From Brevundimonas bullata (lineage in GTDB: Bacteria; Pseudomonadota; Alphaproteobacteria; Caulobacterales; Caulobacteraceae): a stretch of 64,000 nt of DNA. The notes beneath the pieces were generated by a model, which saw only the letters and a list, made by a program, of their open reading frames with translations, was not told where the DNA came from and did not search any database. The position numbers and the translations under genes are program-made. Location of the stretch: assembly GCF_003350205.1 (NCBI RefSeq), contig NZ_QLLC01000020.1, positions 1 through 64,000 on the forward strand, written 5' to 3'. How positions within the stretch are numbered: position 1 is the stretch's first letter; each line of letters begins with the position of its first letter. Positions 42,144 through 64,000 of this stretch are shown piece by piece.

Positions 42144-42233
<90 letters not shown>

Positions 42234-42547: not shown

Positions 42548-42606
42548 AAATCGACGGAACAGGATCGTAAATCGACCGAACAGGGCTTTATATCGACCCG
42601 AACAGG
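42548..42606. repeat. Three 21-bp-phased direct repeats, ATCGACSGAACAGG
   Basis: AATCGACGGAACAGG, AATCGACCGAACAGG and TATCGACCCGAACAGG have their ATCGAC starts at 42550, 42571 and 42592, a spacing of 21 bp twice. Such two-helical-turn spacing suits protein binding on one face of DNA. They end about 40 bp from the recombinase stop codon. Confidence 0.8.
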
Positions 42607-42647
42607 CTGATAATTTTGGCGACGATGTAGTGGGTGCTGCGCGAGGC

Positions 42648-44943: not shown

Positions 44944-45012
44944 GATGTTCCGGTCCAGGTGAGCCAGGCTAAGCGCCCTACTGACCTGAGCCCGGGGCGG
45001 CCGGGCGGTTCA

Positions 45013-45558: not shown

Positions 45559-45677
45559 TCAGCGGACCTCCCGTAGACGACAAGTGACATCGTCATGGTC
45601 TCAACCACAAACAAGTCAAGCCGATTGTCTCTGATCGTCTGTAGACCTATCGACGACATCGCCATGTCCAAGTGGGG
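45559..45677. promoter_or_regulatory. Divergent control region between nuclease and XRE regulator
   Basis: The 119-bp gap has GTCT-GT-AGAC (45637-45646) and a second GTAGACGAC near 45572, with related GACATCGTC/GACGACATCG pairs. These could be operator half-sites for the adjacent XRE protein. They do not exactly match known C-boxes, so the call is tentative. Confidence 0.3.
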
Positions 45678-45884
45678 ATGGAAAACGTCCGTCAACGCCT
45701 TGCCGCCAATCTGCAAAAGCACCGCCGCGCCAAGGATCTTAGCCAGGAAGCCTTTGCCCACGAGGCAGGCATCCATCGAACCTACGTGAGTGATCTCGAA
45801 AGAGGAGCGCGGAACCCGACGATCGATGTAATCGACCGCCTGGCCCGCGCCTTGAACGTCAAGATTAGCGATCTGCTAGACTGA
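45678..45884 (+). CDS. XRE family transcriptional regulator (C-protein-like)
   Basis: The product (68 aa) is a single helix-turn-helix domain: NLQKHRRAKDLSQEAFAHEAGIHRTYVSDLERGARNPTIDVI. It has the size and layout of restriction-modification controller proteins. ATG 45678 is chosen over GTG 45672. It is divergent from the PD-(D/E)XK gene and convergent with DUF5681. Confidence 0.88.
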   Translation: MENVRQRLAANLQKHRRAKDLSQEAFAHEAGIHRTYVSDLERGARNPTIDVIDRLARALNVKISDLLD

Positions 45885-45907
45885 GAACAGTCGCTCCATA
45901 AACCCAG

Positions 45908-46330
45908 CTATCTCTTTGAGCGTTCGGCCAGACTGATCATGAACGCCCGGATCAACGGGTCCTTGGAGCCAACGTCCTGATAATCGGGAGCATGCTGATC
46001 AATCAACCTCAGGCGACTATCTTGGATGATGTTGTCCCCGAAGGCGTCCTGGATCAGCTTGATCGCTTGTCTCTGCTGAGAGATCTTTCCGTTCGCCGCG
46101 TCGATGAAGATGCGGTAGTAAATGGCCTGATCCAGGGTCATTTTCTTGACCCCGCCTGGCGTTTTCACTGGGATTTTGATCCGGGCGATCGCACGCACGT
46201 CACGGCCTTGCTGGCTCGGGATTTGCGCTTGCGGGACCTTGCGCGGACGCCCCTTCGGATTCCCCGACCTGCCAGGCTTGAACCGCGTATCTTTGGCCGG
46301 ATTATTGGGGGCCTCGGGATGGTCGGTCAT
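45908..46330 (-). CDS. DUF5681 domain protein
   Basis: The product (140 aa) has the DUF5681 N-terminal motif TRFKPGRSGNPKGRPRK, a basic patch, then a helical part (ALIDQAIYY-like MTLDQAIYYRIFIDAANGKI). This domain usually appears in prophages and islands next to methyltransferases or terminases; its role is unknown. Its start overlaps the methyltransferase stop (ATGA). Confidence 0.85.
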   Translation of the reverse strand: MTDHPEAPNNPAKDTRFKPGRSGNPKGRPRKVPQAQIPSQQGRDVRAIARIKIPVKTPGGVKKMTLDQAIYYRIFIDAANGKISQQRQAIKLIQDAFGDNIIQDSRLRLIDQHAPDYQDVGSKDPLIRAFMISLAERSKR

Positions 46331-47658
46331 GCCGCGCCCTCCTCGGCTTGCTGGCTCGCCCTCACCTCGGCGACGTCAGCGAACACCCGGCCATCCCCCT
46401 CAAGCGTCGCCTGAAGCTTGGCCCTTTCACTGAGGCGGCGGATGATGACGTCGCAATAGAGCGGATCGATCTCGACGCCGCACCCGCGGCGGCCGGTCCG
46501 GTGCGCCGCCAGAAGGGTGCTGCCAGAGCCCGCAAAGGGATCCAGCACGATGTCGCCACGGCGCGAGCAGTCGCGGATGGCGTCCATGATCATGGCGACA
46601 GGCTTCACGGTGGGGTGATCGGCCAGGTCCTCGTCCCGACCGGCGCCGAAACTGTTGGCTCCGGCATAAGCCCAAACATTGGTCCTATACCGGCCGTGCC
46701 GCCCGAGCTCCACGTTGTTCACGTGCGGCGCTCGGCCGTATTTGAAGACGAGCACCAGTTCATGCGCCGATCGATAGAGCGAGCCCATGCCCCCGTTGGT
46801 CTTGGTCCAGACGCAAAGGTTTTTCAACTCGCTGTAGGCGGCGGTTCCCGCCTGCAGAATCTCGGGCAAATGGCGCCAGTCCATGCAGTGGAAATGGATG
46901 GATCCCTCCGTCGACGCCTTGGTCACCTGTGTGAAGACCCGAAAGAGGAAGTTAGCGAATTCTTGGCTGGCCATCTCTCCCGACGCCATAGCGAACTCTC
47001 GATGCTGGGCCTTTCCCAACCCGGAAACATGGCCTGCGATGGGGAGATTGTATGGCGGATCAGCGAACACCATCCCCGCCTTCTCCTCGCCGAGGAGTTG
47101 AGCGTAGGTCTCAGTCTGCAACGCATCCCCGCAGATCAGGCGATGACGCCCGATCTGCCAGACATCGCCCGGGCGCGTGACAGCGGGGCCCGCAGCGGAT
47201 GCAGGCACTGCGTCATCGGGGATGCCCTTGGCGACTTCCGTTCCGATGTCGCTGAGAATGGCGTCGATCTCGGGCAATTCGAAACCGGTCAGGCACAGAT
47301 CGAAATCCACATCCAGATCGGCCAGGTACTGGAACTCGACCCCAAGCAGGTTGCGATCCCAGCCGGCGTTCTCCGCCAGTCGATTATCCGCAATGACGTA
47401 GGCGCGCACGTCGGTCTCGCTCATGTCGGCCAGGCAGACCGTCGGGACCTCAGTCAGGCCCAACTGTTTGGCCGCAGCGATCCGGCCATGGCCGGCGACG
47501 ACGCCATCATCCTTGTCGATGAGCACCGGGCTGGCGAAGCCGAACCGCTGGATAGAGCGGGCGATCTGGTCGATCTGCTTTTGACTGTGGGTTCGTGGGT
47601 TTCCAGCGCGTGGCCGCAGGTCGCTAATGGGGCGATATGTGATTTGCAGGTGGGACAT
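46327..47658 (-). CDS. ParB-like domain plus DNA methyltransferase fusion
   Basis: The product (443 aa) begins with a ParB/sulfiredoxin-like domain (residues about 5-110; ISDLRPRAGNPRTHS, VVAGHGRIAAAKQLG). An N6-adenine/N4-cytosine methyltransferase of beta order follows: DPPYN at 200-204 comes before the SAM motif DPFAGSGSTLLAA near residue 395. It likely modifies island or phage DNA. No cognate restriction enzyme is fused; the nearby PD-(D/E)XK protein is a candidate partner. Confidence 0.9.
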   Translation of the reverse strand: MSHLQITYRPISDLRPRAGNPRTHSQKQIDQIARSIQRFGFASPVLIDKDDGVVAGHGRIAAAKQLGLTEVPTVCLADMSETDVRAYVIADNRLAENAGWDRNLLGVEFQYLADLDVDFDLCLTGFELPEIDAILSDIGTEVAKGIPDDAVPASAAGPAVTRPGDVWQIGRHRLICGDALQTETYAQLLGEEKAGMVFADPPYNLPIAGHVSGLGKAQHREFAMASGEMASQEFANFLFRVFTQVTKASTEGSIHFHCMDWRHLPEILQAGTAAYSELKNLCVWTKTNGGMGSLYRSAHELVLVFKYGRAPHVNNVELGRHGRYRTNVWAYAGANSFGAGRDEDLADHPTVKPVAMIMDAIRDCSRRGDIVLDPFAGSGSTLLAAHRTGRRGCGVEIDPLYCDVIIRRLSERAKLQATLEGDGRVFADVAEVRASQQAEEGAA

Positions 47659-48769: not shown

Positions 48770-50794
48770 ATGTATCTGTCGAATCTGAAGATTGAAAACT
48801 TCCGGGCGTTCGGCTCCGAAGCCGCGGGCACGTCGCTGGACCTCACGCTGTCGCAGGGTCTGAACCTCCTGGTCGGCGAAAACGACGCGGGCAAGACCGC
48901 CGTCGTCGACGCCATACGCCACCTCCTATGGACCACGAGCCAGGATTTCCACCGCTTGACGGAGGACGACTTCCACGTCGAAGGCGACGAGCGCGCCCGG
49001 GACATGAAGATCACCGCCGTCTTCGAGGGGCTCAGCCTGCTTCAGCGGGCGGCGTTCCTAGAATATCTGACGATCGCCGACGGTGCCGAGCCCTCCTTGT
49101 CGATCTCGTTGCTGGCGCGCAGACAGGACCGCGCTGGCGGGCAGAAGGGCCGCGCGAGCGTCTTTTTCCGCGCTGGGGCCGACGCCAAGGGTCCGCCGGT
49201 CGAGGGTGCCTTAAGAGAGTTCCTGCGCTGCACCTATCTCAAACCGCTCCGGGACGCCGAAGGGGAGCTCAGCGCCGGCAGGAGCTCACGGCTATCGCAG
49301 ATCTTGAAGTCACACCCCGACTTTTCGGAACAGGCAAAAAGCGACTGGTCGGCCGAGGCCCCGACAATCTCGCCCACTACCCTCGTGGGGATCATGAAGC
49401 AGGCGGAACACCTGATCCGCTCCAACAGCGTCGTCCAGGCGGTGCATACCAACATCAACAGCCAGTTCCTCGAGGACCTATCCCTCGGGACAGAGATACT
49501 CACCGCAGCTATCTCCGTGGCCCGCAGCGCCGACCTGCAGCAGATTCTCGAGAAGCTTGAGCTGGCGCTGGACCCCAAGGCCGGCGTCGGCCTCCCGACA
49601 CGGCGCGGCCTCGGACTGAATAACGTCCTGTTCATGGCCACCGAACTGCTGCTCCTCGGCGCGTCCGACGGCATGCCATTACTACTGATCGAGGAACCGG
49701 AGGCCCACCTTCACCCGCAGATGCAGCTTCGCCTGATGGAGATGCTGGAAGCACGGGCCGCGCCTCCCGCATTGCCTCCTCCCTCTCTGGAAGGCGATCC
49801 TCAATCGGAAGCGCATGCGGAACCGAGCGCCACCCTGCCGCCCTCGCCGCTTCCATCGGAGCGGGTTCAGGTCATCGTGACGACCCACAGCCCCACGCTG
49901 GCCTCCAAGGCCGACGTCGAGACGCTGACCCTGATCACCCAACACCAGGCGTTTTCTCTTGCGGCGACCTGCACCCAGCTCGACGCGAGCGATTACTCGT
50001 TCCTGCGCAGGTTCCTGGACGCGACCAAGGCCAATCTGTTCTTCTCCAAAGCGGTCGTTGTCGTCGAGGGCGACGGTGAGAACATCATCCTCCCGGCCCT
50101 TGCCAAGGCGCTGGGGCGGTCTTTCTCGAAGTACGGCGTCTCGGTCGTGAGCGTTGGCCACCGTGGCCTGTTCCGGTATTCGCGGATCTTCCAACGGAAT
50201 GATGAGCGCAAAGTCCCGATCCGGGTCGCGTGTGTGGCGGACCGGGACGTACCGCCCGCGGAGGCCAAGGCCTATGTCCCGCCCCCTCCGCCTCCAAAGG
50301 AGGGCAAGGAGGCGACCCGCAAATTCGCCGACGAGTTCAGCCTCGAGGAGCTCCAAGGCTTCTCGGACAAGCTCCGGGAGCGGGACGGGGAACCGGTCCA
50401 GACCTTCGTCTCCCCCAGCTGGACACTCGAACACGACATGGCGCTCGATCCGGCTTTCCGCCCCCTCGTGCATCGCGCGATCAGGCTGGCGCGGCGCGCC
50501 AAGAATAGCGGGGTGCCGCTGTCGAATCAGGCAGTGGCCCAGGTGCGCACCAAGGCCGACGGAGACCTGGCGGCCTGGACCACCGAGGACCTCAGCCACG
50601 CTCAGATCGCCGCCAAAATCTACGAGCCCCTTTTCGACAAGAAAGCCTCCAAGGCTGAGACGGCCCAATACCTCGCCGACGAGCTTGAGCGCGCAAACCT
50701 GTCTCCGACGGAGCTGGTCGCCCGCCTGCCGGCCTACTTGGTCAGCGCGATTGAATACGTCACGGCGCCGGTCGACATCGAAGAGGCCATATGA
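48770..50794 (+). CDS. gajA: Gabija-type OLD family ATPase/TOPRIM endonuclease GajA
   Basis: The product (674 aa) has an ABC/SMC-type ATPase domain: Walker A GENDAGKT at 36-43, Walker B LLLIEEPEAHLHPQ near 304-316 and an H-loop VTTHSPTLASK near 370. A TOPRIM nuclease domain follows, with AVVVVEGDGENIILP near 428 and VACVADRDVP near 487. This is the class 2 OLD arrangement of GajA, a nuclease triggered when phage infection depletes nucleotides. It is longer than characterised GajA; a Pro/Ser-rich insertion (about 329-366) lies between Walker B and the H-loop. The stop overlaps the helicase start (ATGA). Confidence 0.88.
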   Translation: MYLSNLKIENFRAFGSEAAGTSLDLTLSQGLNLLVGENDAGKTAVVDAIRHLLWTTSQDFHRLTEDDFHVEGDERARDMKITAVFEGLSLLQRAAFLEYLTIADGAEPSLSISLLARRQDRAGGQKGRASVFFRAGADAKGPPVEGALREFLRCTYLKPLRDAEGELSAGRSSRLSQILKSHPDFSEQAKSDWSAEAPTISPTTLVGIMKQAEHLIRSNSVVQAVHTNINSQFLEDLSLGTEILTAAISVARSADLQQILEKLELALDPKAGVGLPTRRGLGLNNVLFMATELLLLGASDGMPLLLIEEPEAHLHPQMQLRLMEMLEARAAPPALPPPSLEGDPQSEAHAEPSATLPPSPLPSERVQVIVTTHSPTLASKADVETLTLITQHQAFSLAATCTQLDASDYSFLRRFLDATKANLFFSKAVVVVEGDGENIILPALAKALGRSFSKYGVSVVSVGHRGLFRYSRIFQRNDERKVPIRVACVADRDVPPAEAKAYVPPPPPPKEGKEATRKFADEFSLEELQGFSDKLRERDGEPVQTFVSPSWTLEHDMALDPAFRPLVHRAIRLARRAKNSGVPLSNQAVAQVRTKADGDLAAWTTEDLSHAQIAAKIYEPLFDKKASKAETAQYLADELERANLSPTELVARLPAYLVSAIEYVTAPVDIEEAI

Positions 50795-52710
50795 TCCCCG
50801 TCGAGATAGCGGATGCAGACATCGACGAGATCGCCGCCTTCATGGGCCGGAACTTCGATGCCGCAGACTGCCGGCAGATCCTCAAGGCGCGCGAGACGCT
50901 CGACGTCCAGGCCGCCCCCGGAAGCGGCAAGACGACGCTGCTGGTCGCCAAGCTGGCCCTACTCGGCGCGCGCTGGTCCCACGCCCGCCAGGGGATCTGC
51001 GTCCTGTCCCATACCAATGTGGCCCGCGTGGAGGTGGAGACGCGCCTCCACCTCCACCCCGCAGGCCGCGCCTTGCTGAGCTATCCGCACTTCATCGGCA
51101 CCATCCAGACCTTCGCCCACCAGTACCTGGCGCTGCCGTATCTAAGGGGTTTGGGGATCACACTCCGCAGCGTCGATGACGCGCGCTTCACAGCCGCGGC
51201 AAGGAGGCTCGTCAAGCTCAACAGCTTCTGGCACGCCAGAAAATATCTTGAGCGCAATCCAAATCGGGCTGAGGGCATCCTGTCTTCACTTACACTTTCG
51301 GGCGCGGATCTGGATCTTACCTGCGGCGAAAGCCTGCCGAGCGAGACGACCGACACCTTCAAGAGCTTCCATAACCTGAAATGGCGGCTCGCCCGCGACG
51401 GCGTCTTTCGCTTCGCAGATATGTTCGCCTTCGCTCAGCGCGCTCTCAGAGAAGTCCCCGGAATCGCAGAAGCCGTAAGCAGTCGGTTCCCTGTAGTGTT
51501 CTTCGACGAGATGCAAGACACTGGCGCCCTCCAGGAGGCCTTGGCCGAGGCGGCTTTCGGCAACCGCTCGACGATCCAGCGCTTTGGGGACTGCAACCAA
51601 GGCATATTCGATAGTTCAGATCATGCCGAGGCGCCAAACAGCTTTCCGGTAGAGGACGCGGTCGACCTTTCTCACAGCCGCCGCTTCGGCCCGTTTATCG
51701 CCGCGGCCGCCTCTACCCTCACGGTCGTTCGCGCCCAGAAGATCGTGGGAAACACCGACCGCGCCGAGAAGCGGCATGCCATCTTCCTGTTCGACCGGTC
51801 CTGCGTAGACCGGGTGCTGCCCGCTTTCGGCGACCATGTGCTCGCGGAATTCCCCGCACCGCTTGCCTACGGGTTCGTCGCCAAGGCGGTCGCGCTGCGG
51901 AAAAAGGGTGAAGGCGCATCCTGGCCGCGCCACCTCGGCGATTACTGGCCGGACTTTGATGCAACCCAGACATCGCGCTCGAACGGCCTGAATACCTTGA
52001 TTGGCTATGTTCGCCGGGCGCGTGCGGTCCTGACGGAAGATGGGGCTCTCCACGCAGCAGCGCCGATCATCTGGGAGGGCGTCACAGCCCTGCTTCACAA
52101 TCACGCCTGCGAGCTCCCGACAGGGGAGTCGATCGGGAAGAAGTCCGTGCTCAGGGCGCTAGATGAGACGGTCCCGGACGCCTCGGCCCGTCTGCTCGCG
52201 GCCGTGCATGAGTGTTGCCTTGGCCCACCGCTCGTCGAGGCGAATTGGAAGACGATCGTCCAGAACCTCGTCACCTCACTGACGCCCTTGATCTCGACAG
52301 CCTCGGCCGCTGACGACTTCCTCATCTGGGATTCAGAGGCGCCGGCGGTCGACGACAAGCCCACCGAACGCCGAAACACCTATGAGCATTTGGGGGACGG
52401 CCGATCGGTCGCGATCGACCTCAACACCATCGCGGGGGTCAAGGGTGAGACGCACGATGCGACACTCGTGCTGACATCTTCCAAGAGCAAGCTGTACGAC
52501 GTCAAGGAGGCGCTGGGCCCGCTTTCGGGCACCGCTGCCGCTAGGGCGAAGACCACCATCCCGCCGCAGCTCATGAACCTCTTTGTCGGGATCACACGAC
52601 CCAAATCGCTGCTCTGCCTGGCCGTCGTCGCCGATCACATGACAGAGCCCCAGAAGACCGCGTTGATCGGCAACGGATGGCTCATCCAGGACCTGCGTGT
52701 GCTTAGATGA
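50791..52710 (+). CDS. gajB: Gabija-type UvrD-like helicase GajB
   Basis: The product (639 aa) is a superfamily 1 helicase: Walker A QAAPGSGKTTLLVAKLA near 41, motif Ia LSHTNVARVEVETRL, motif II FFDEMQDTG near 238, motif III QRFGDCNQGIF, motif IV/V VKGETHDATLVLTS and motif VI MNLFVGITRPKSLLCL. Translationally coupled to GajA by a 4-bp overlap, it forms the standard Gabija pair. It is about 140 residues longer than the founding GajB, with extra sequence between motifs III and V. Confidence 0.88.
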   Translation: MIPVEIADADIDEIAAFMGRNFDAADCRQILKARETLDVQAAPGSGKTTLLVAKLALLGARWSHARQGICVLSHTNVARVEVETRLHLHPAGRALLSYPHFIGTIQTFAHQYLALPYLRGLGITLRSVDDARFTAAARRLVKLNSFWHARKYLERNPNRAEGILSSLTLSGADLDLTCGESLPSETTDTFKSFHNLKWRLARDGVFRFADMFAFAQRALREVPGIAEAVSSRFPVVFFDEMQDTGALQEALAEAAFGNRSTIQRFGDCNQGIFDSSDHAEAPNSFPVEDAVDLSHSRRFGPFIAAAASTLTVVRAQKIVGNTDRAEKRHAIFLFDRSCVDRVLPAFGDHVLAEFPAPLAYGFVAKAVALRKKGEGASWPRHLGDYWPDFDATQTSRSNGLNTLIGYVRRARAVLTEDGALHAAAPIIWEGVTALLHNHACELPTGESIGKKSVLRALDETVPDASARLLAAVHECCLGPPLVEANWKTIVQNLVTSLTPLISTASAADDFLIWDSEAPAVDDKPTERRNTYEHLGDGRSVAIDLNTIAGVKGETHDATLVLTSSKSKLYDVKEALGPLSGTAAARAKTTIPPQLMNLFVGITRPKSLLCLAVVADHMTEPQKTALIGNGWLIQDLRVLR

Positions 52711-52780: not shown

Positions 52781-53332
52781 TCAGCAACGAGTCAGACCTG
52801 CGCACTCGGCATCTGACCGAACCTGCTCGATCCGCCGCTTCACCTTGTAGGCGGTGAAGTTCTTGTCGCGGGTGTTCACCGCCTTGAACTTCGAACCGTC
52901 GATGGCGACGAGGGCCGATCCGAACAGGCCCAACTGTCGGCACAGCACCACGAACTGCGCACAGGCCGCCTGGATCGCAGGGCCATTCTCGCGGCGGAAG
53001 TCGGCGATGGTCTTGTGGTCCGGCGCCAGCCGCCCCGTTAGCCACATCAGTTCGACGTTGCGCTGCGCCTCACGCTCCAGTCGCCGGCTCGACTGCACCT
53101 TGTTCAGGTAGCCGTAGACGTAGAGCTTCAGCAGCATGGCCGGGTGGTAAGCGGGCCGTCCCGTCGCTGCGGGCGTCATCCCCTCAAACCCCAGCCCCTT
53201 CAGATCCAGCTCGTCGACGAAGACATCGACCACCCGGACCGGATTATCCTCGGCCACATAGTCATCAAGACACTCGGGAAGCAGCGTCTGCTGCCGGCGA
53301 TCTGCACCCTGAACGAAGCGGCTCATACCCAC
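52781..53332 (-). pseudogene. IS1182-type transposase, N-terminal fragment
   Basis: The 183 codons match the start of IS1182/IS5-group transposases: RRQQTLLPECLDDYVAEDNPVRVVDVFVDELDL, TGRPAYHPAMLLKLYVYGYLN, SSRRLEREAQRNVELMWLTGRL, and the first catalytic Asp in ALVAIDGSKFKAVN. The frame leaves the family soon after YKVKRRIEQV and stops, so the C-terminal catalytic residues are missing. It separates Gabija from BREX. Confidence 0.85.
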
Positions 53333-53448: not shown

Positions 53449-55536
53449 TCAGCAGTTCTGGATATAGGTCACATAGAAGCCCCGGATCATCCGGTGCTCT
53501 TGCATCCGTTCCCCTAGCGAAAAGCCGTTCATCTTTCGGGGTGTAGGCTGAAAAATATCCAACCCACGATCCAGAACCATCTTCCAGCCGGTGTCCGTTG
53601 TAATGTCGCGTGCATGGAGCGTTCCGGTTCCATCAAAGACCCAGGTGAAATCAACGCCCGTACCAGTGCAGGCCTCGGTGATCCCATCGAGGCATTCCCG
53701 CTGCTCTTGAATGTTCCCATCGTCCGGAGCGGTGACAAGATGCACCGCGACCTGATCTTCGGGCTGTTTGCGTCGGATCAGCATCTCGATCAGTTCCATC
53801 ACGTTGCGCGCCTGATAAAACTTCCGGACATATGGATCGGTAATGACAATCCGCGTTGCTCCATCCGTCCATGGGCCAAAGATCTTGTCGAAGCTGATGC
53901 CCTTGCGGTTTTCCGTGAAGACGACATGCCCGGGCTTCGGGACAAAAGCAGGAGCAGGAGCAGCGGCAACATCAGGCGCTGCGGAGGCAGCCGACGCTGA
54001 CGCTGGCACCGCCGAAATCGGCACGACCTCAGGCTGATCCGCACTGACATCCACATCGCCGGCAGACCGCCGATGGTAGAACTGAGGAAACTCTTCTTCC
54101 TCCAGCGTGGTGACAGCGCGCTTTGCTCCATCCGACGCGATGTAATGGAAATCAGCGCTTTCAAAGGTGCTGTCGATCCGCAGGAGCTGGTCTTTCACCC
54201 GTTTGCGGCATTCAATCGCAAACCGCAGCAACTCTTCAACCTCAGCTTCCGTCTCGCCGCCATTCGGGAAAATCAGCTTCAACAGGCCGGACATGGTTTT
54301 GCTGATCGCTGCACGGTCCCGGATATGGGTCTGAACGGGAATGGTGAAGTAGCGATCCGGCCGGTGCGAGAAGTCCTCGGCACGCAGGTGACGCAGGATT
54401 TCAGCAAGATAGTCGACGATGAACCCATAGCCAGACGTGAACATATCGCCTCGAATGATGCCTACCTCCCATCCCGGGAGATAGGCATGCAATCGATCGA
54501 TAAAGGCGCTGTCGTGGAACTGCGGCGGCAGCGCCTCGAACAGGTCAGTATTTTTCAGCATCCATGGGACGTTATGGTCTGTATTGCCAACGAAGGCGAA
54601 ACTGGCCTCAGCACCCATGGGATTTACCCCCCGCGAGAACTGCTTGTTCGCCATGTAGTTCTTCATGATATCGACAAGCGCCTTGTTAGCTGTCTTATCG
54701 CGGCCGGCAAATTCGTCAAAAGCGACGACATCCCAATAGCCAACCAACCCAATCCGCCCATTGGAGTTGTTCACGAAGAGCTTAGGAATCGTGACTTCAC
54801 CCCCGGAGATCAACTGACCATGAGGGGAGAACTCGGAATAGATATGCGATTTGCCCGTCCCCTTGGGACCAAGCTCAATGAGGTTGTAGTTGCGCTCGAC
54901 GAAGGGGATCAGTCGTAACAGTTGCAAAAGTTTCGACCTGCGCCCGAACAGAGAGGGGTCAAACCCGATGCTCTGCATCAGAAGATCAATCCATTCCGCG
55001 GTGGTGAATTTGTCACGCGTCTCGCGATACCCGTCATAGTCGACGCGGGCGATCTGGATCGGTTTCAGCGTATCGATGATCCAGGGGGAAATCCGGCTGT
55101 CTTCCGAGAACTCATATTGCACATCGGCGATGCACCAAATTCCGGTAACCAGCAGTTTCGGATGGGCCTTGACCGTGGCGCTGTCGATCGCAACCCGTTT
55201 GATCCCAAGGTTCTCAAACACCGCCTCATAGGCGTCGGTCTTTTCGTTCAACGCAACGCTGACCTGATCGATGACCTTGTAGCGGCCACGCTCCTTGATT
55301 GTCGACTGGACCAGCCCTGCTTCGGAACGATGGACGTAATGTTTGCGCAGGATATCCTTGACCGTCTCGATGCCTGTCGCAATCGAGGCTTCGTCGTCGG
55401 TGGCGCAGTATTGGCCAAGCAGGTATTCGAGCACATAGGTGGGAACAATGGCATTCCCCTTCACGGCCTTCACCAGGTCCTTGCGAACCACGAAACCGGC
55501 AAAATGCTCGTTTATCTTGTCATCAAGGGTCGACAT
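53449..55536 (-). CDS. brxL: BREX protein BrxL with C-terminal MIT_C-like domain
   Basis: The product (695 aa from ATG 55536) has the BrxL N-terminal region and AAA+ core: LIELGPKGTGKSHIYSEFSP (Walker A), VVAFDEFAGRDKTANKALVD (Walker B) and NPMGAEASFAFVGNTDHNVPWML. After an Ala/Pro linker the last 140 or so residues (ITDPYVRKFYQARNVMELIEML, AVHLVTAP, LHARDITTDTGWKMVLDRGLD) closely resemble the C-terminal domain of human MITD1. BrxL is needed for BREX phage defence; it is the last gene of the operon. I see no clear Lon-type Ser/Lys protease signature. Confidence 0.88.
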   Translation of the reverse strand: MSTLDDKINEHFAGFVVRKDLVKAVKGNAIVPTYVLEYLLGQYCATDDEASIATGIETVKDILRKHYVHRSEAGLVQSTIKERGRYKVIDQVSVALNEKTDAYEAVFENLGIKRVAIDSATVKAHPKLLVTGIWCIADVQYEFSEDSRISPWIIDTLKPIQIARVDYDGYRETRDKFTTAEWIDLLMQSIGFDPSLFGRRSKLLQLLRLIPFVERNYNLIELGPKGTGKSHIYSEFSPHGQLISGGEVTIPKLFVNNSNGRIGLVGYWDVVAFDEFAGRDKTANKALVDIMKNYMANKQFSRGVNPMGAEASFAFVGNTDHNVPWMLKNTDLFEALPPQFHDSAFIDRLHAYLPGWEVGIIRGDMFTSGYGFIVDYLAEILRHLRAEDFSHRPDRYFTIPVQTHIRDRAAISKTMSGLLKLIFPNGGETEAEVEELLRFAIECRKRVKDQLLRIDSTFESADFHYIASDGAKRAVTTLEEEEFPQFYHRRSAGDVDVSADQPEVVPISAVPASASAASAAPDVAAAPAPAFVPKPGHVVFTENRKGISFDKIFGPWTDGATRIVITDPYVRKFYQARNVMELIEMLIRRKQPEDQVAVHLVTAPDDGNIQEQRECLDGITEACTGTGVDFTWVFDGTGTLHARDITTDTGWKMVLDRGLDIFQPTPRKMNGFSLGERMQEHRMIRGFYVTYIQNC

Positions 55537-55543
55537 CGGCACC

Positions 55544-58057
55544 TCAGAAATCGAAATCTGTGCTGATCCCGCGCTTCAGTAGCAATGGCTGTGAAGCGTG
55601 ATCTTCGAAATGGCTGGTCTTGCCGATGCGTGTCCGCAGCTTCAGAAATACTGTCTGATTGTTATAGGCGTCTGCGCCCCGGGACAGCAGGAAGTTGCGC
55701 GATAGCTCGCGCTCACGCGGGTTCTCGGACGCAAAATCAAACTCCAGCTCGGCTTCGTCAGAGATGAGTGCTTCATCACCTGCAAAGATTGCGGCATAGA
55801 CCTGCCGGGGCTGCTGTTTTTCGGTAACCGGCTCCGCCTGATAGAATGTGATCTGGATCTGACCTGTCGTGATCTGGGCGCGGGCCGGCGGAATGATCTG
55901 CACCGACACCTGCCCGATATCCTCCTTGCGCTGCTTTCCCACACGCAGAACCGGCAGGACGATCTCCTGCAGGCTCGCCCCACCATGGACAAAGCGGCTG
56001 CCTGATCCTTTCACGCGCAGACGGTTGATCGAGTTCGGGATCAAGATGTCCTGATCACCACCCAAGCCAAGCTGCGCGGCCGTGAACTTCTTCATACCAA
56101 CGCCGCTGCTAAGGCCCCGACCGATCACATAGCGCCGATTGCGTGTGACGATGTCGCCTTCCGGCTCACTCAGCGCAAAGCCGCTTTCTTCTAAAGCCTT
56201 GTGCTGCCAAAGGAACCCATGATCCGCGGTGATCAGGATGTTCGAGAAATTGGCCGAGGTCAGCTTGCGCACCAGCTTCACCAGATCCTCAATGGCAGTC
56301 TCCGCCGCCGCAGGAACATTCTCTTCGGTGGCCAGCTTGTCGCCAATCGCGTCGATCTGATTGTGGTACAGGTAGAGAACATCATTATCTCGAAAGAGGC
56401 CCTTGCCCTCTGATGTCGCGAGATTCATGAAATCTTTCGCCGCCAGAACCTTGACTCGGTCCCCCGCCCGACCAGCAGCCAGCGCCTTTTCACGAGCGAC
56501 CGCGCCCATGGTGCTTTCACCGTCCAGCAACACCAGGTCATTGTCATTGCGAATGGCCAACTTCTGGTGCGGCAAGAGCGCCGCCATGCCAAGCTGAGTA
56601 TAGCTGGGTAAGGCTCCGATCATCGGCGTCAGCTCGGCATCAAACCGGTTGAGCTTACGGATCTCCCGCAGTGTCTCTTCGGCTACTTCGTAGCGGAGCG
56701 CGTCCGAGATGATGACGACGACTTTCTGTGGGTTCTCAAGGCGTCGGTAGAACGCAACCTGCTCTTGGTAAAAACCCATTTGACGCGGGAATCCCGGCAC
56801 CGCCCAATCCGTCAGACGGGTTACCTGATCCTGCCAAGCATCGTTCAGCTTCAGCACGAAATTCGTAGTGTAGCGGTTCTCGACCGCGTCATAGAGCGCG
56901 GACAACAGCCCCGACTGCCCGCTTTTCTGCATGTGATAGATAAACTTGCGATAAAGCTGGTCCAGGCGGAACCAGCTCGCGGAATAGCGCTTCACGCCGT
57001 CGGACAGGCTGGTCATGGTCAGGTCGGCCTCAGCCAAGGCCTGCTGGAACTCGGTCGCGTAACCGATGGCCTGATAGACGTCCGCGTAACGAGCATACCA
57101 ATGACTCTGACGGCGATCGCGTACCCATTTCAGCACATCTGTCGCCGCCAGGCTCTGCTGGGCCAACCCCTCGACGATGGCGATGACGATCCGCCGATCT
57201 ACCTCTTCGAAATGGTCATGCGGCATCAGCTTGCGGAAATCACGTGGTGCCAGATCGTCCCGGATCTTCAGCACATCCTGATAATCGCCCGAGAGCTTTT
57301 CGAACGCCTCTCCCCACCGGCGCGAGGCGCTCCAGCGGCGGAACATCAGCGCAGCATCCGTGCTCAGGGCGGCAGCCTCGCCCATCGCGCGCGCCCAGGC
57401 ACTGGAAAAGAGTGTGATGGCGAAGTCCTGAAAATCCGGTTCGGAAGTCACATAGCCATAACGCGTGGCCACTTCCTTCCAGAAGAACTCCGCCAGCCCG
57501 ACCCGATCCATCAGCCGCAGCGCTTCATCACGCTCTTCGGCTAATTCGGCCAGCAGAGCCTCGATCACCGTATCCAGATCGCCATCCGCACCGGCGCAGA
57601 CTGCGAGCATCTTACGGCGGACATCATTCGCGCTTTGCGACGGGCGCTCGCGCTCGATGGCGCGCAGGGCTTCCAGCCGCTTGCCGGAACGGTAGAATTC
57701 GGCGTGATCGCGCACGGCGGCTTCGTATTTCGCCGAAATGCCGAGATCGGCTACCCATATCGCCGCCTGATCGGCGCGGAAGACCGCGCTGGCCAGTTGC
57801 ACATCCAACAACCAGTTCTCAGCCATCGGCGGCTCAGGGCCATCCTTAAAGAGAAGGAACCGCGCTTTCGGCTCCTGCCGCAGCATGCGGTATTTAAGGC
57901 CGAATTCGCTGTTGGCGATCTCCACCTTGGTCACGCCCGGCAGGTCAACGGCATCGAATGCCGCGCGCAGATCGCGAACGGCGTCATACCAGAAGACTAT
58001 GCGGTGCCCCTGATCCTCATAAAGCCGCATCAGGCCGGCGGTGATGCGGTCAGTCAT
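55544..58057 (-). CDS. pglZ: BREX-1 phosphatase-domain protein PglZ (type A)
   Basis: The product (837 aa) has the alkaline-phosphatase superfamily core of PglZ: KVVVIISDALRYEVAEETL with the metal-binding Asp, IGALPSYTQLGMAALLPH, and ILITADHGFLWQHKALEES with the distal Asp-His pair. The N-terminus (MRLYEDQGHRIVFWYDAVRDL) is that of type A PglZ. It is a core BREX component acting with PglX and BrxC. Its start overlaps the pglX stop by 8 bp. Confidence 0.94.
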   Translation of the reverse strand: MTDRITAGLMRLYEDQGHRIVFWYDAVRDLRAAFDAVDLPGVTKVEIANSEFGLKYRMLRQEPKARFLLFKDGPEPPMAENWLLDVQLASAVFRADQAAIWVADLGISAKYEAAVRDHAEFYRSGKRLEALRAIERERPSQSANDVRRKMLAVCAGADGDLDTVIEALLAELAEERDEALRLMDRVGLAEFFWKEVATRYGYVTSEPDFQDFAITLFSSAWARAMGEAAALSTDAALMFRRWSASRRWGEAFEKLSGDYQDVLKIRDDLAPRDFRKLMPHDHFEEVDRRIVIAIVEGLAQQSLAATDVLKWVRDRRQSHWYARYADVYQAIGYATEFQQALAEADLTMTSLSDGVKRYSASWFRLDQLYRKFIYHMQKSGQSGLLSALYDAVENRYTTNFVLKLNDAWQDQVTRLTDWAVPGFPRQMGFYQEQVAFYRRLENPQKVVVIISDALRYEVAEETLREIRKLNRFDAELTPMIGALPSYTQLGMAALLPHQKLAIRNDNDLVLLDGESTMGAVAREKALAAGRAGDRVKVLAAKDFMNLATSEGKGLFRDNDVLYLYHNQIDAIGDKLATEENVPAAAETAIEDLVKLVRKLTSANFSNILITADHGFLWQHKALEESGFALSEPEGDIVTRNRRYVIGRGLSSGVGMKKFTAAQLGLGGDQDILIPNSINRLRVKGSGSRFVHGGASLQEIVLPVLRVGKQRKEDIGQVSVQIIPPARAQITTGQIQITFYQAEPVTEKQQPRQVYAAIFAGDEALISDEAELEFDFASENPRERELSRNFLLSRGADAYNNQTVFLKLRTRIGKTSHFEDHASQPLLLKRGISTDFDF

Positions 58058-61000
58058 CCGCGGCCTCCAGCCCCTTGATCGGCTTCAGCGCGCCGGCGAA
58101 CAGCGGATAGTTGCGCTTCACCCCGTCATCCAGATCGATGGCGATCTTCTGCTGCGCCATGGGATAGACGACATCGCGTTCCCATTCGGTCAGCTCGGCG
58201 ATCTGTTTGATGACCGTAGTTGTTTCCTTCTGCGCCTTTGTTTGCTGGGCGGGCGTAGCGGCAGGATCGTCGGCCAGCTTTTCCAGCCGGGCACGCTCCA
58301 CCTCCAGCTTGTGAATGAATTCGCGCAGATACTGGTTCAGCACGACGGAGACCGTGTCGGGCCGATAGCGGTGCATGTAGATCAGCGCGTTGAAGCTGCC
58401 CCTGGGGCTGGAAAACATCCAATAGATCGGGCGCTTCTTGTAGCGGCGCACATGATATTCGAAGAAATCCTTCGTGAACCAGCGGCGCAAATCCTTGCCG
58501 ATCGCCTTTTCGATGAAGGCGAGGTTTTCGCGGAATTTCGCCTCGCCAAAGGTGACACGCAGGAAGTCGCGGGCACGGCTGACGATGTCATCGGCAAACC
58601 AGTCGGCATCCAGTACCGGGATGACATTGTCGCGGTCTGGGGCGAAGCTGGGCTCCGGCACGCGGGCCAGATACTCCTCGATCCCCTCTCCCTGATTGGC
58701 AAGGATCAGGCCTGGCGCATCGAAGCTGTAGCGCCCGAACATGCAGCCCACGGCATAGTGGAGGAATTCGGCCACCGTATCCTCGCGCAGCCGCGCCTCC
58801 CGCTCCTCTTCCGAGGACTTCACGCCATAGCGGTAGGCCGGGTTGCAGGTGAGGGTGATTTCCTCGATCGGCACCTCGGGGGTGAGTTCGTCAGCCAAGC
58901 CATAGGCGTCGATGAAAATGCGGTTGTTCTCTTCCTCCAACCGTTGCATCTCGTTCGTCATGCCCCGCCAATGGGTGCGGAGCTTGACGTAGGTGGCCAC
59001 CAATGTTTCGCCCCGATGATCAGGCGAGAGCAGCGGAAGCGTGGTGAAATCCCAAGAGGTTTCGTAGGCGTCCCAATCTGCTTTGGCGAGTTTGACCAAA
59101 TCGTCCACAAGGTGCGAAACAGACACTCCATCATAGCCCTCGAAAACGGGAAGGAGCTTCATGCTACCGGGACCAAAATCTTTGGCTGCCACTACTCGTA
59201 GCAAGGGCGGAACGGCTTTGGAGTGCAGAAAACCCAATGTGAAATCTAATGCGCGTTTCTTGTCGCCAAAAAACATGGAATTCTTCTGGTCGAATACGTG
59301 ACCTTGCGACACTCGTCGAACCGACAACCTGCTTGCGATTGTGTTGTAGGCCAAGCCGTCTCGGAAGTAGTATTGTTCATTCCTGACAGTTGCGCTTCTA
59401 TGAGATTTAATCTCTAATCCGTCGGATGCCCAATCGAGAATAAACTCGTGGTTCCCATACCATTTTCTAAAATCACTACCCTTTACGTACGGAACCCACT
59501 TTCCCGACCAACTTGATTTCGTTTCAAGTGTCACGCCGAAGTCAATCGCGTCACGATTAACTTCGCCCCAAGAGCGAATAAAGCGTGGGTTATCTCCCGT
59601 TTGGAGGCCAGTAAACGCTTCGGCATACTCTTTCAGAGGTGTCCCTTTTGCATAGGCCTCCCGAGTGTGGTCCGAGACGAAATACGCAACCACGTTTCGA
59701 GGCAGACGAGCGAAGTCAGCCCCGCGCGCGCGATGTTCCCCGTGCTTGCTTCGAAGCATGGACGCCTTCTCATCGGAAGTCTGACCCTCAGTCAGATCGA
59801 AAAATTGAGCTTCTCGATTGGGATCGCCATCCTTTTGAGATACAAAGCATGCGACCTGTACAACTTCGCCCTTAATTTCGTCGAAAGCGCGAGGGCCAAG
59901 GTGGGCCAACTGCAGGAATGGCGACGCGGTCAACAATCGAACACGCATTTCTGTATAGTCATCGCCGAACAGCCAGCTATCCATTGCGATCATTGATGAA
60001 ATACCATGCTTTCTTGACAGCTTGCTCAAGCGATCAATGAACGCTGAATATAGATCGGAAAAGCAATCCGAAAACTCTTCAACCAGGAAAGATTGAAGTT
60101 GGCCGTTTAGATCACCCTTTTTCTTGTAGGGCGGGTTGGCCACGACCACATGATACTTAGGCGACAGCGCCTCGGCCATGCGCAACACGGCCACGACGCG
60201 CTCCTGCACCTCCTTCAGCAGCAAGTCGGATCCGAAATCCCGTGCCTCGACCACCCGCAGCGTCTCGGCCGGATCACGCAGCTTCGGCACGATCAGCGAA
60301 CCAACGTTCTTGGCCTGCTCGTACTGCCCCAGTGTCTTACGAAGTTCATCCGTGAACAGATCCTTGCCCACCACGGCGGCCACGTCCTGCATCTCGGTAG
60401 GTGTGAAGCGCACATTTTGCAGCACGACAATATCAGGCTTCGCCTCCATCCTCAGGAACCGCCGCCGCCCCAGCTTTGCCGCCGCCTTCATCGACAGCGC
60501 AAAGGCCGCCAAGGCGCCTGCGCGGTTATCAATCTCGATGCCCGTCAGGTTATGCGTCAGGATCAGGCCGGGGATTTCGGCCGCGTCATGGCCTTCCTCG
60601 GCATAGATTTCATAGAGCAGGTCAAACGCATAGGTCAGCATATGGCCCGAACCGCAGGCCGGATCGCAAATGCGGACATCCTCAGGCCGGGCGATCTTCA
60701 GGAAGTCCGTTTCCGGCTCTTCCGGCGCGATGTAATAATCCATCTTCGCCGCCAGCTTCGACTGCGGACGGTTCAGCAGCCACAGCCGCCCCAGCGAGTT
60801 TTCCACCAGATAGCGGACTATCCAATGCGGGGTGAAGAGCTGCGTCGCGGCGGGAATATTTTCCGCCGTGATCTTCTGGTTCTTCTTCAGGCCTGCAAAG
60901 ACCTGATCCTTCTTCTCGCTGATATAGAACTGGTAAAGCCAGCCGATGATCTCGACATCCTGGCAGGCATCTTCGGTCATCACCTCGCGCAGGCGGGCAA

Positions 61001-61535
61001 GGATACTGTCCGGCGACAGCAGATCGTCGGGCACCAGCAGCTCGGTAAAATCCTCGGCCCGGTCGAGCATATCGGCGCGCTCGAACATATACGGCATCGC
61101 GCCATGCCATTCGTTGCAGGCGTGGATCAGCAGCAGCCGATAGGCTTCCGCCTGCCCATCATGGACGGGGCGGGTACCGTTCAGATATTCGGCAATCTCG
61201 GGCCGGGCGCGATCCGGCAGATTGCCGGCCATAGCCTCCGCCAGAATCTCGGGCCGGGTGGCGCCATCGGCGGGTGAAACGACGCGCGGGTTGGTCAGGC
61301 CCGTCAAATCCATGAAGCGCAGCGCGGTGAAGCGGTTGAACCAGGTGTAGGCCGCCTGTTCGATCACGTGGGCGCGGTTGCTGTTAGCGGCCGCTTCCAG
61401 CTTGGCAATCGCCTTGGAATGTTCGCGGCGAGCCGCTGCGCCTTCTGCTAGAATCATGTCCAGCCGGGCGGTGACCTGATCGATCAGCAGGTTGCGCGCG
61501 CTTTGCGCAAATTTCTTCAGCGCGTTGGTATCCAT
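58050..61535 (-). CDS. pglX: BREX-1 adenine-specific DNA methyltransferase PglX
   Basis: The product (1161 aa) has SAM motif I DPACGSGHMLTYAFDLL (about residue 291) and catalytic NPPY (about 467-470), typical of N6-adenine methyltransferases. It marks host DNA at a non-palindromic site so that BREX can tell it from phage DNA. The part after NPPY, about residues 473-815 (DNA 59.1-60.1 kb), is conspicuously AT-richer than both flanks and contains the presumed target-recognition region. Its ATG shares one base with the brxC stop (TGATG). Confidence 0.95.
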   Translation of the reverse strand: MDTNALKKFAQSARNLLIDQVTARLDMILAEGAAARREHSKAIAKLEAAANSNRAHVIEQAAYTWFNRFTALRFMDLTGLTNPRVVSPADGATRPEILAEAMAGNLPDRARPEIAEYLNGTRPVHDGQAEAYRLLLIHACNEWHGAMPYMFERADMLDRAEDFTELLVPDDLLSPDSILARLREVMTEDACQDVEIIGWLYQFYISEKKDQVFAGLKKNQKITAENIPAATQLFTPHWIVRYLVENSLGRLWLLNRPQSKLAAKMDYYIAPEEPETDFLKIARPEDVRICDPACGSGHMLTYAFDLLYEIYAEEGHDAAEIPGLILTHNLTGIEIDNRAGALAAFALSMKAAAKLGRRRFLRMEAKPDIVVLQNVRFTPTEMQDVAAVVGKDLFTDELRKTLGQYEQAKNVGSLIVPKLRDPAETLRVVEARDFGSDLLLKEVQERVVAVLRMAEALSPKYHVVVANPPYKKKGDLNGQLQSFLVEEFSDCFSDLYSAFIDRLSKLSRKHGISSMIAMDSWLFGDDYTEMRVRLLTASPFLQLAHLGPRAFDEIKGEVVQVACFVSQKDGDPNREAQFFDLTEGQTSDEKASMLRSKHGEHRARGADFARLPRNVVAYFVSDHTREAYAKGTPLKEYAEAFTGLQTGDNPRFIRSWGEVNRDAIDFGVTLETKSSWSGKWVPYVKGSDFRKWYGNHEFILDWASDGLEIKSHRSATVRNEQYYFRDGLAYNTIASRLSVRRVSQGHVFDQKNSMFFGDKKRALDFTLGFLHSKAVPPLLRVVAAKDFGPGSMKLLPVFEGYDGVSVSHLVDDLVKLAKADWDAYETSWDFTTLPLLSPDHRGETLVATYVKLRTHWRGMTNEMQRLEEENNRIFIDAYGLADELTPEVPIEEITLTCNPAYRYGVKSSEEEREARLREDTVAEFLHYAVGCMFGRYSFDAPGLILANQGEGIEEYLARVPEPSFAPDRDNVIPVLDADWFADDIVSRARDFLRVTFGEAKFRENLAFIEKAIGKDLRRWFTKDFFEYHVRRYKKRPIYWMFSSPRGSFNALIYMHRYRPDTVSVVLNQYLREFIHKLEVERARLEKLADDPAATPAQQTKAQKETTTVIKQIAELTEWERDVVYPMAQQKIAIDLDDGVKRNYPLFAGALKPIKGLEAADD

Positions 61536-64000
61536 CAGACAATCACTTTCTTGCCCGCGCCAATCTCGGCCAGCAGGGTCTTTTTCATCTCATCGAGGTA
61601 GCGGGTCACATCGTCCTCATCTTCGAGATAGGTTTTCGCGAAGGGGACCGTGATCGACTGAGCCTTGATATACTGGGGCTTTGTCGGTGCCGGCGGCACG
61701 TATGGCTTAGCCGGGGCTTCGGCCACGCCGCCGGCAGGTTCGGGCTGAGGCGTGGGAGACGGCGCCGGTGCAGGCGTAAGTTCGGCGATCCGCGTCAGCG
61801 TGTCGGCCAAAAGGTTGGAACGCACCTCTGTCGCCCGATGGCGCAAGGCCGGGATCAGGCTTTGCGAGGCTACGCCGGCTTTCTGCACGGCAAGCTCATC
61901 GCGGATACGCGCCTGCTGCTCTGGCGGTAGCGCACGGAATTCTGAGGTCTGGGCGATTTTATCAGCCACCTCGTCAATCGCGGCGATGACAGCGTTGCGC
62001 TCAGCCAGAACCGTTTGTTCGATAAGCTCTTTCAGGGTGTAGAAATCCGCCTTCAACTCCTGAATTGCAGTGCCCTTGAAGCACTGCGGATCAGCCAGAA
62101 CCTGACGCATCGTACCGGCAGCAGTATCCTCGTCATAGGCAAGGTTCTGGTCCTGCGCGGCCAGGAATGCGCGCACCTCATCATAGATTCCCTTTTGCGG
62201 GCCGGACATGAAGCTGCGGACCTTGTCGAGGATATCCTCCTTGGCATCCAGAAGCTGATCCTCCTGCTCCACCGGGCCGGTAATGAACCAGGTCGCCGAC
62301 TGGTCGCGCATGCTTTCGAGCAGGTGCCGCAAGGGATCGAGAGCGGCAACAAACGGGTAGCCCGCCGCCTGCCGCCCAAGCGTCTCCAGTTCGCTGGTCA
62401 GCTTGCGCAACTGCGCCTGCCACTCCGCACCAAGACTGCGCGCGTCATTCCCCGAGGCGGGTAGGTCGAACAGTGCCTGGAACAGTTCACGCGATTTACG
62501 GATCTGGGCGGGGGTGAACTCGATCTGCGGCGAGAGCAGGATATTGCCGAGGCTATGGCTGTTGCGCAGCCCCTGAATAAGTGCCTGCCCTTCCAGCAGG
62601 GCGCTGTCGGCACGCGCCTCAAGCTTGCCGCGCGCGACGAGGCTCGCGGTCAGGCAAAGAACGGCGATAGAGGGCCAGCCATAAGGTTTCGCACCAAACT
62701 TCTCGACCAAGGCCTTCGCAGAGACCCGCGTCCCAAGCTGCATCTGGGCCTGAGCATGGTTCAGCACATCCTGCTCAGCTTCGGTCAAACCGCTGCCTTC
62801 AGCGCCGAAAAGCTCACCATCCGTTTTGCCTGCACGGGCAAGATCCGCTTCGGTGTAGGTGGCGCCGCGTAGCACAGGCAGGCTGGTGTAGACCTTGTCC
62901 ACCAAGGTCTGGAAACCTTTGACCAGCCGCTCCTGCGGGTCTTCCCCACCGATCTCCAGTTCAGCTCCGCGCACGAACAGCCGCGCCTCTGCCATCAGGC
63001 TGCGGAGCCGCTGCACCAGATCCTTTTCACGCCGCGTATTCTGATCCCGCTTTTCCGCGATGATACGATCGCGGCCAGGTTGGGCATCCCCGCTGGTGAC
63101 CTGACGGGCAAATTTTACGGTCTGGAGCCACAGGATGAGATCGCGAGTAAAGCGTACATCCCGCCCCAGCATGACAACCATCTCATCGCTTGCCATGCTG
63201 TTCGAACGCACCACGTCCGGTGCGTCGGAATCGTCGCTGAAGGGCGAGATGATATTCACCGAAAGCTCGTGCTCCCGGTTCAGGCCGTGCCCGTCGAGCT
63301 TACGGGTAAAGGCATAGTCAACACCCGTACCCGCATGCTTGATCTTGCCGTGACGCAGGATCGCACCGAAAGCGAGTTCGTCGAGTTGCCGTTCGATCTC
63401 AGCGGGATCGACAGCAATCGCCTTGATCTCGGCCTCAACGTCCTTTTCCTCGTTCGTGAGGAATTCATAGACTTCGCCATTGCGCTGGATCAGCGTCTGA
63501 CGTTCCAGAAGCGACAAAGCCTCTTCGATATTGCGGCGCTGCTCGGTCTGATCCGCCTCGAACCGGGACAACATGAGGATCGATATATTGCGCGCAGTCG
63601 GCTTGAATTCCTTGACGTATTTTACAAGGAACAAGACTTTCAGCACCCGCACAGCAAAATCGTCGCCAAGGTTCTTTTCAGCCAGCTGGATCGACTGCTG
63701 AACTGATGACTTCAGTGCGGTGCGGATCCCCTCGAACATCAGATCGAAGGTCGCAAGCCTCCCGACCGGCGTATCTGCCAGCCGCTTCGCCACCTCCTGA
63801 AACACTCCCAGCATCGAGCGTTCGCCAACCGAGCTATGCTTGCCCTCAAACGCGTTATGCTGCGAGAGGCCCATGATCGCACGCTGAAACAGATCATACT
63901 GGTAATTCGGGAACGGATAGCTCGCGATAAACTGCTCTTTTCCGGAAAAATTCTTGAACTTGAAAGAATTATCGCCAAAATCGAACAGCGTGCGTAGATT
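61535..64000 (-). CDS. brxC: BREX P-loop protein BrxC, C-terminal part (cut by window edge)
   Basis: The frame is open from the window's right edge through 821 codons, so the ATG at 63874 is internal. The visible part (FIASYPFPNYQYDLFQRAIMGLS, RSMLGVFQEVAKRLAD, LEDEDDVTRYLDEMKKTLLAEI) matches the C-terminal two thirds of BrxC/PglY, a large ATPase. The Walker A lies outside the window. A helical, charged region and a Pro-rich linker (about 70-130 residues before the end) precede the C-terminus. brxA and brxB are expected farther right. Confidence 0.92.
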   Translation of the reverse strand, partial: NLRTLFDFGDNSFKFKNFSGKEQFIASYPFPNYQYDLFQRAIMGLSQHNAFEGKHSSVGERSMLGVFQEVAKRLADTPVGRLATFDLMFEGIRTALKSSVQQSIQLAEKNLGDDFAVRVLKVLFLVKYVKEFKPTARNISILMLSRFEADQTEQRRNIEEALSLLERQTLIQRNGEVYEFLTNEEKDVEAEIKAIAVDPAEIERQLDELAFGAILRHGKIKHAGTGVDYAFTRKLDGHGLNREHELSVNIISPFSDDSDAPDVVRSNSMASDEMVVMLGRDVRFTRDLILWLQTVKFARQVTSGDAQPGRDRIIAEKRDQNTRREKDLVQRLRSLMAEARLFVRGAELEIGGEDPQERLVKGFQTLVDKVYTSLPVLRGATYTEADLARAGKTDGELFGAEGSGLTEAEQDVLNHAQAQMQLGTRVSAKALVEKFGAKPYGWPSIAVLCLTASLVARGKLEARADSALLEGQALIQGLRNSHSLGNILLSPQIEFTPAQIRKSRELFQALFDLPASGNDARSLGAEWQAQLRKLTSELETLGRQAAGYPFVAALDPLRHLLESMRDQSATWFITGPVEQEDQLLDAKEDILDKVRSFMSGPQKGIYDEVRAFLAAQDQNLAYDEDTAAGTMRQVLADPQCFKGTAIQELKADFYTLKELIEQTVLAERNAVIAAIDEVADKIAQTSEFRALPPEQQARIRDELAVQKAGVASQSLIPALRHRATEVRSNLLADTLTRIAELTPAPAPSPTPQPEPAGGVAEAPAKPYVPPAPTKPQYIKAQSITVPFAKTYLEDEDDVTRYLDEMKKTLLAEIGAGKKVIV

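What the first reader, a model, noticed from the sequence alone, without database searches (positions are those of the whole stretch)
53449..55140. BrxL-like AAA+ protein carrying a MITD1-like C-terminal domain
The last 140 or so residues contain ITDPYVRKFYQ, a following VHLVTAP strand, and LHARDI...GWKMVLDRGLD, the pattern of the MIT_C (phospholipase-D-like, membrane-associating) domain of eukaryotic MITD1. BrxL is usually described as AAA+ with a Lon-like region. A lipid- or polyphosphate-binding fold at the end of a BREX effector would suggest action at the membrane or on phosphodiester substrates. The BREX genes and the BrxL core are visible directly; the MIT_C match is from memory of the human sequence.
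Basis: partly seen in the sequence, partly recalled or inferred. Interest (0 to 1): 0.68.

Follow-up and report, generated by a model that had tools for sequence, protein, structure and literature searches.

The report
BREX BrxL with MITD1-like C-terminal domain
This bacterial phage-defence protein (BrxL of a complete BREX system) really does end in the same phospholipase-D-like domain found in the human cell-division protein MITD1; the combination is common and already catalogued, but bacterial and human copies share the same putative active-site residues, which makes the disputed question of cutting enzyme versus binding module directly testable.

Summary
Observation confirmed. The ORF at 53449-55542 (-), 697 aa, is BrxL_N + BrxL AAA+ ATPase + a C-terminal MIT_C domain (residues 548-694; Pfam E=1e-36). 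A single-sequence search finds human MITD1 (E about 5e-14), and the family profile gives E=4e-43. The predicted domain structure matches MITD1 best (TM 0.82 on the target), then PLD-superfamily enzymes. There is no Lon domain. The gene is intact in a complete type I BREX locus. It is not new: PADLOC holds a full-length model of this BrxL type. A 2026 NAR survey (PMC12839542) reports 1030 of 2913 BrxL proteins with this C-terminal replacement, called an 'HKD-endoDNase' with an HRD motif. In my samples 7 of 17 BrxL-bearing Pseudomonadota genomes carry it. What I add: the 'HKD' domain and MITD1's domain are one family. H643 is invariant and R645 nearly so; both are kept in human MITD1, while the Asp is Asn there. 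The catalytic Lys is Arg and no GSxN motif is seen. One BrxL sub-clade is 44-50% identical to human MITD1 (window: 31%). Most likely function: a flexibly tethered, DNA-backbone-directed PLD-like domain, probably a nuclease, unproven. Membrane action is not excluded.

The parts
53449..55542 (-). brxL, 697 aa, BREX type I BrxL with C-terminal MIT_C
55114..55509 (-). BrxL_N domain (residues 12-143)
   Evidence: Pfam PF20442 E=3.7e-49
54148..55083 (-). BrxL AAA+ ATPase domain (residues 154-465), Walker A GPKGTGKS and Walker B VVAFDE intact
   Evidence: Pfam PF13337 E=4.5e-125; sequence; conserved in A1/A4
53932..54084 (-). Ala/Pro-rich linker (residues about 487-537), predicted disordered
   Evidence: sequence; pLDDT below 50 over most of 487-531 in the full model
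53461..53901 (-). MIT_C (MITD1-type PLD-like) domain, residues 548-694
   Evidence: Pfam PF16565 E=9.8e-37; MITD1 by phmmer, profile and fold
53593..53616 (-). H643-x-R645-x4-D650 motif, the PLD 'HKD' equivalent with Lys replaced by Arg
   Evidence: H643 100%, R645 99%, D650 92% of 76 bacterial domains; human MITD1 has H, R, N
55544..58057 (-). pglZ (BREX-1 PglZ type A)
   Evidence: TIGR02687 1.1e-226
58050..61535 (-). pglX (BREX-1 adenine methyltransferase)
   Evidence: NF033452 E=0
61535..64000 (-). brxC; continues past the window to contig position 65074, followed by brxB (65078-65680), brxA (65683-66312) and a WYL-domain regulator (66422-67303)
   Evidence: contig beyond the window

Best explanation
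This is the BrxL effector of a complete type I BREX system in which the usual inactive Lon-like C-terminal domain is replaced by a PLD-like MIT_C domain on a flexible linker. Shown by sequence and prediction: the domain content, the MITD1-type PLD-like fold, the intact ATPase motifs, the complete locus, and the conserved H-x-R-x4-D site. Inferred: as in Acinetobacter BrxL, the N-terminal and AAA+ parts assemble ATP-dependently on unmethylated phage DNA. The tethered PLD-like domains, possibly paired as in single-motif PLD nucleases and the MITD1 crystals, then act on the DNA phosphodiester backbone, most likely by cleaving it, using H643 as nucleophile and R645 in place of the usual lysine.
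For: Domains and family. Fold closest to MITD1, then PLD6/Zucchini (E 5.5e-4), PLD2, Nuc 1byr (3.7e-3). The predicted strand (HxR..) - turn (D) - strand hairpin resembles the PLD active-site hairpin (reading of secondary structure). H643 is 76/76, R645 99%; in a survey of 80 loci 71 are HxRx4D, 5 HxRx4N, 1 HxRx4S, 2 HxCx4D. The domain is found almost only on BrxL in BREX loci. Published census and the same functional proposal (PMC12839542). DNA-loaded dodecameric BrxL structure (PMC10164562).
Against: The HKD lysine is Arg in nearly all members; Lys-to-Arg changes such as PLD2 K758R are, to my knowledge, standard catalytically inactive mutants (use of such mutants: PMC3648575). No GSxN motif at the canonical spacing. 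The Asp is Asn in some members and in human. Human MITD1 keeps the same His and Arg and, to my knowledge, has no reported catalytic activity. Structural similarity to true PLD enzymes is modest (TM about 0.4), superposition of H643 on a catalytic His could not be tested, and a profile comparison with one PLD protein found nothing. Domain net charge is -3, not an obvious DNA binder.
Confidence: 0.48

Rival explanations
1. MIT_C on BrxL is a non-catalytic phosphate-binding or assembly module: the H/R pocket grips DNA backbone or another BREX protein, or joins rings as the inactive Lon-like domain does in Acinetobacter BrxL, while PglZ supplies the nuclease.
For: Lys replaced by Arg and GSxN absent across the family. 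The Lon-like domain it replaces is also inactive and serves ring dimerisation (PMC10164562). The locus retains PglZ type A, a reported nuclease (PMC12205998, title).
Against: His 100% and Arg 99% conservation with the neighbouring hairpin and RGLD looks like an active or ligand-binding site rather than a plain dimerisation surface; the long disordered linker suits a tethered arm better than a rigid ring contact.
Confidence: 0.3
2. The domain binds membrane lipid, as in MITD1, placing BREX restriction at the inner membrane where phage DNA enters.
For: Same family as MITD1, whose domain binds membranes (Hadders 2012, cited). One bacterial protein joins MIT_C to a dynamin-family GTPase, a membrane-remodelling class. 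22 of 27 strongly conserved bacterial positions are kept in human MITD1.
Against: In bacteria the domain is overwhelmingly fused to a DNA-loading ATPase in BREX loci. Net charge is negative; surface charge was not tested. The dynamin fusion is a single case.
Confidence: 0.12
3. Convergent or chance similarity; the C-terminus is really a degenerate Lon-like domain.
For: Database names call the protein 'Lon protease-like'.
Against: MIT_C E=1e-36 against no Lon hit; the TIGR02653 match stops at position 477; the fold search gives MITD1/PLD.
Confidence: 0.01

Closest known systems
BrxL with C-terminal 'HKD-endoDNase' (Rakesh and Krishnan 2026, PMC12839542); PADLOC PDLC02508
   Same: Same architecture and HRD motif; PADLOC model covered 1-695 of 698 at E=0; the paper counts 1030 of 2913
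   Different: Nothing essential. The paper's main text never mentions MITD1 (its 'MIT' hit is 'mitigate').
Acinetobacter BrxL, PDB 8emc/8emh
   Same: N-terminal and AAA+ domains, E about 1e-138 over residues 5-481
   Different: C-terminal Lon-like fold there; MIT_C here
Human MITD1 C-terminal domain, PDB 2ymb/4a5z
   Same: Family, predicted fold, H/R/GW/RGLD residues
   Different: No MIT domain here; 31% identical; human has Asn in place of D650
Single-motif PLD nucleases (Nuc 1byr, Zucchini/PLD6)
   Same: General fold, HxRx4D resembling HxKx4D
   Different: Lys replaced by Arg, no GSxN, TM only about 0.4, activity unknown

Membership tests
BrxL (type I BREX) | BrxL_N and BrxL_ATPase domains with Walker A/B | tested here: met
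   (3.7e-49, 4.5e-125); motifs
BrxL (type I BREX) | Encoded as last gene after brxA-brxB-brxC-pglX-pglZ | tested here: met
BrxL (type I BREX) | Full-length match to a curated BrxL model | tested here: met
   PDLC02508 E=0, 1-695/698; TIGR02688 602 bits
Lon-type BrxL (TIGR02653) | Lon-like C-terminal domain | tested here: not met
   569.7 bits, below the 628 cut-off, matched only 3-477/675
MIT_C (PF16565) | Score above curated cut-off, full-length domain | tested here: met
   126.5 bits against 25, 1-141/142
MITD1 (as a protein) | N-terminal MIT domain binding ESCRT-III | tested here: not met
   No MIT domain found
HKD phospholipase-D superfamily | PLD-like fold | tested here: met
   Foldseek: MITD1, then PLD6, PLD2, Nuc; AlphaFold model, not experiment
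HKD phospholipase-D superfamily | HxK(x)4D(x)6GSxN catalytic motif | tested here: not met
   HxR(x)4D with no GSxN at that spacing
HKD phospholipase-D superfamily | Nuclease or phosphodiesterase activity | not testable with these tools
   needs biochemistry

The most novel reading that the evidence does not exclude
BREX BrxL, bacterial dynamin-like and eukaryotic MITD1 proteins share one ancestral H-x-R phosphate-site module. The MITD1 domain of the eukaryotic abscission machinery has its nearest relatives found here in a sub-clade of BREX BrxL (44-50% identity), so either a domain from a phage-defence system entered the eukaryotic ESCRT machinery (or the reverse), and human MITD1 either has an overlooked phosphodiesterase activity or the BrxL 'nuclease' is not one.
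Probability: 0.25. Interest if true: 0.68.

Novelty: already known. Interest (0 to 1): 0.4.

Why it matters
BREX restriction chemistry is still debated, and about a third of type I BrxL proteins carry this domain (1030 of 2913, PMC12839542). Recognising that the proposed BrxL 'HRD nuclease' and the membrane-binding domain of human MITD1 are the same family, with the same conserved His and Arg, sets two literatures against each other and yields simple paired mutants (H643A, R645A and the MITD1 equivalents) that would decide whether this site cuts, binds DNA, or binds lipid.

Tried and rejected
Truncation by the adjacent IS1182 remnant: rejected, domain complete. Weak MIT_C hits in other Pseudomonadota (L008-L011): partial matches at profile positions 61-127 that scored only about 13-14 bits; from the aligned sequence I read them as ABC-transporter ATPases, so chance. 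Sequence-profile link to an ordinary PLD protein of the same genome: nothing found with a single-sequence template. Full-length AlphaFold model: AAA+ core poorly predicted (pLDDT about 30 over 220-364), so used only for linker and C-terminal domain. Phage records: no MIT_C match. Menshen domain paper and the original MITD1 structure paper are not held. Apparent N-terminal loss of BrxC: only the window edge.

Full report
Observation. The minus-strand frame 53449-55542 encodes a 697-residue protein. Pfam assigns BrxL_N (12-143), BrxL_ATPase (154-465) and MIT_C (548-694, E=9.8e-37, 126.5 bits against a cut-off of 25).

Structure. AlphaFold2 on the C-terminal 181 residues gave mean pLDDT 84.6, pTM 0.79. 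Foldseek against the PDB puts the MITD1 entries first (E 2.5e-13, TM 0.82 on the target), followed with much weaker scores by Zucchini/PLD6, PLD2, phosphatidylserine synthase and the nuclease Nuc. Against viral structures the best are PLD-domain proteins. The full-length model has a poor AAA+ core, but places a disordered Ala/Pro-rich linker before the domain.

Locus. Upstream in operon order lie pglZ type A, pglX and brxC. Beyond the window edge lie brxB, brxA and a WYL-domain protein. The system is therefore a complete type I BREX. A Gabija pair (48770-52710) lies downstream on the opposite strand, separated by an IS1182 transposase remnant.

How common. In a spread of 398 Pseudomonadota genomes, 17 have BrxL and 7 have MIT_C, all 7 among the 17. 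Further samples: 18 of 391 genomes (20 places, of which 18 are BrxL fusions, one stand-alone, one remnant), and 6 of 369 over the cut-off, all in BrxL-sized frames. Plasmids of Alphaproteobacteria, Gammaproteobacteria, Actinomycetota and Bacteroidota carry it. Of the 22 IMG/VR contigs with MIT_C, 20 are BrxL fusions, one is an end fragment (L084) and one is a PglZ-MIT_C join (L104). Phage records have none. These counts agree with the published 1030 of 2913 BrxL proteins (PMC12839542).

Active-site residues. Across 76 bacterial domains Q577, N580, H643, G652, W653, R659, G660, L661, D662 and R684 are invariant, R645 is 99% and D650 92%. Human MITD1 keeps all of these except D650, which is Asn. 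The motif is H-x-R-x4-D in 71 of 80 loci, with N, S or C variants in 8 and one remnant not matched. Compared with the PLD consensus HxK(x)4D(x)6GSxN (as given in PMC11442185), the Lys is Arg and GSxN is missing. PMC12839542 argues that the conservative change 'likely preserves' activity. I consider that open: Lys-to-Arg changes are used as inactive PLD mutants (K758R/K898R in PMC3648575; that these are the inactive mutants is my own knowledge), and the same His/Arg pair sits in MITD1, which is known for membrane binding (Hadders 2012 title).

Evolution. A tree of BrxL N-terminal plus ATPase parts needs two changes between MIT_C and other C-termini, and a single origin is not rejected (p-AU 0.38). 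MIT_C domains form two clades: A (the window and most BREX-1) and B (Thioflavicoccus, Hymenobacter monticola and others, including BrxL fusions from several genomes and contigs). Human MITD1 groups with B against A with 100/99 support, and is 44-50% identical to B but 31% to the window; B members are only 23-29% identical to the window domain. The tree is unrooted and has one eukaryote, so direction and timing are unknown.

Other bacterial contexts. A Candidatus Thiodictyon plasmid protein joins Dynamin_N (2.8e-20) to MIT_C (2.7e-21). A Paenarthrobacter plasmid protein joins IF2_N to MIT_C. One genome has a stand-alone 155-residue MIT_C. All keep H-x-R. The dynamin fusion is the only bacterial evidence that leans towards membranes.

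Mechanism. Acinetobacter BrxL loads on DNA as a dodecamer, with the Lon-like domains joining two rings (PMC10164562). I infer that the MIT_C type uses the same DNA-loading core, with the PLD-like domains hanging on a flexible linker and acting on the backbone, cleavage being the likeliest outcome (about even odds), non-catalytic binding next, membrane attachment least. No step of this is shown experimentally.

Novelty. The architecture is in PADLOC, is annotated by NCBI as 'MIT C-terminal domain-containing' when split from BrxL, is listed as a BREX-associated Pfam in the literature (PMC12715929), and is counted and interpreted in PMC12839542. I found no paper in the held library that links BrxL with MITD1. 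The finding is real but already known in kind; the added value is the MITD1 identity of the 'HKD' domain and the conflict it exposes.

Noticed in passing
L043, L050, L042, L099-L109, L122, L123: A sub-clade of MIT_C domains, nearly all on BrxL, is 44-50% identical to human MITD1's domain but only 23-29% to the window's; the tree groups human MITD1 with it (100/99).
   Followed up: partly
L125:5640-8483 (Candidatus Thiodictyon plasmid pTs485): A 947-aa bacterial protein with a Dynamin_N GTPase domain and a C-terminal MIT_C; no BREX genes annotated within 8 kb.
   Followed up: partly
L041:8443-9492 (Paenarthrobacter plasmid pYJN5-1): An IF2_N domain fused to MIT_C, with no BREX genes annotated within 9 kb.
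   Followed up: partly
L124:8053-8520 (minus strand): Stand-alone 155-aa MIT_C protein next to ABC polysaccharide-export-like genes near a contig end; the same genome also has a BrxL-MIT_C (L123).
   Followed up: no
L104:2294-4231: A frame joining part of PglZ to MIT_C in a 4.5-kb viral-collection contig; a deletion between neighbouring pglZ and brxL or an assembly join.
   Followed up: no
window 48770-52710: Gabija pair GajA (with OLD-like TOPRIM) and GajB on the plus strand, tail-to-tail with BREX.
   Followed up: partly
window 52781-53332: IS1182-family transposase remnant (183 of about 488 aa) between Gabija and brxL.
   Followed up: no
window 42144-47658: tRNA-Ser followed by a large serine recombinase (42648-44261, minus) and a ParB_N plus N6_N4 methyltransferase fusion (46327-47658, minus): possible integrated island edge.
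   Followed up: no
L038, L039, L040: Short MIT_C remnants in Paracoccus and Roseovarius contigs: decayed brxL copies or contig ends.
   Followed up: no
L093:319-1899 (Planktothrix agardhii plasmid p2): A separate gene annotated as a phospholipase D-like protein sits between pglZ and a BrxL without MIT_C, perhaps the same function supplied as a separate protein.
   Followed up: no
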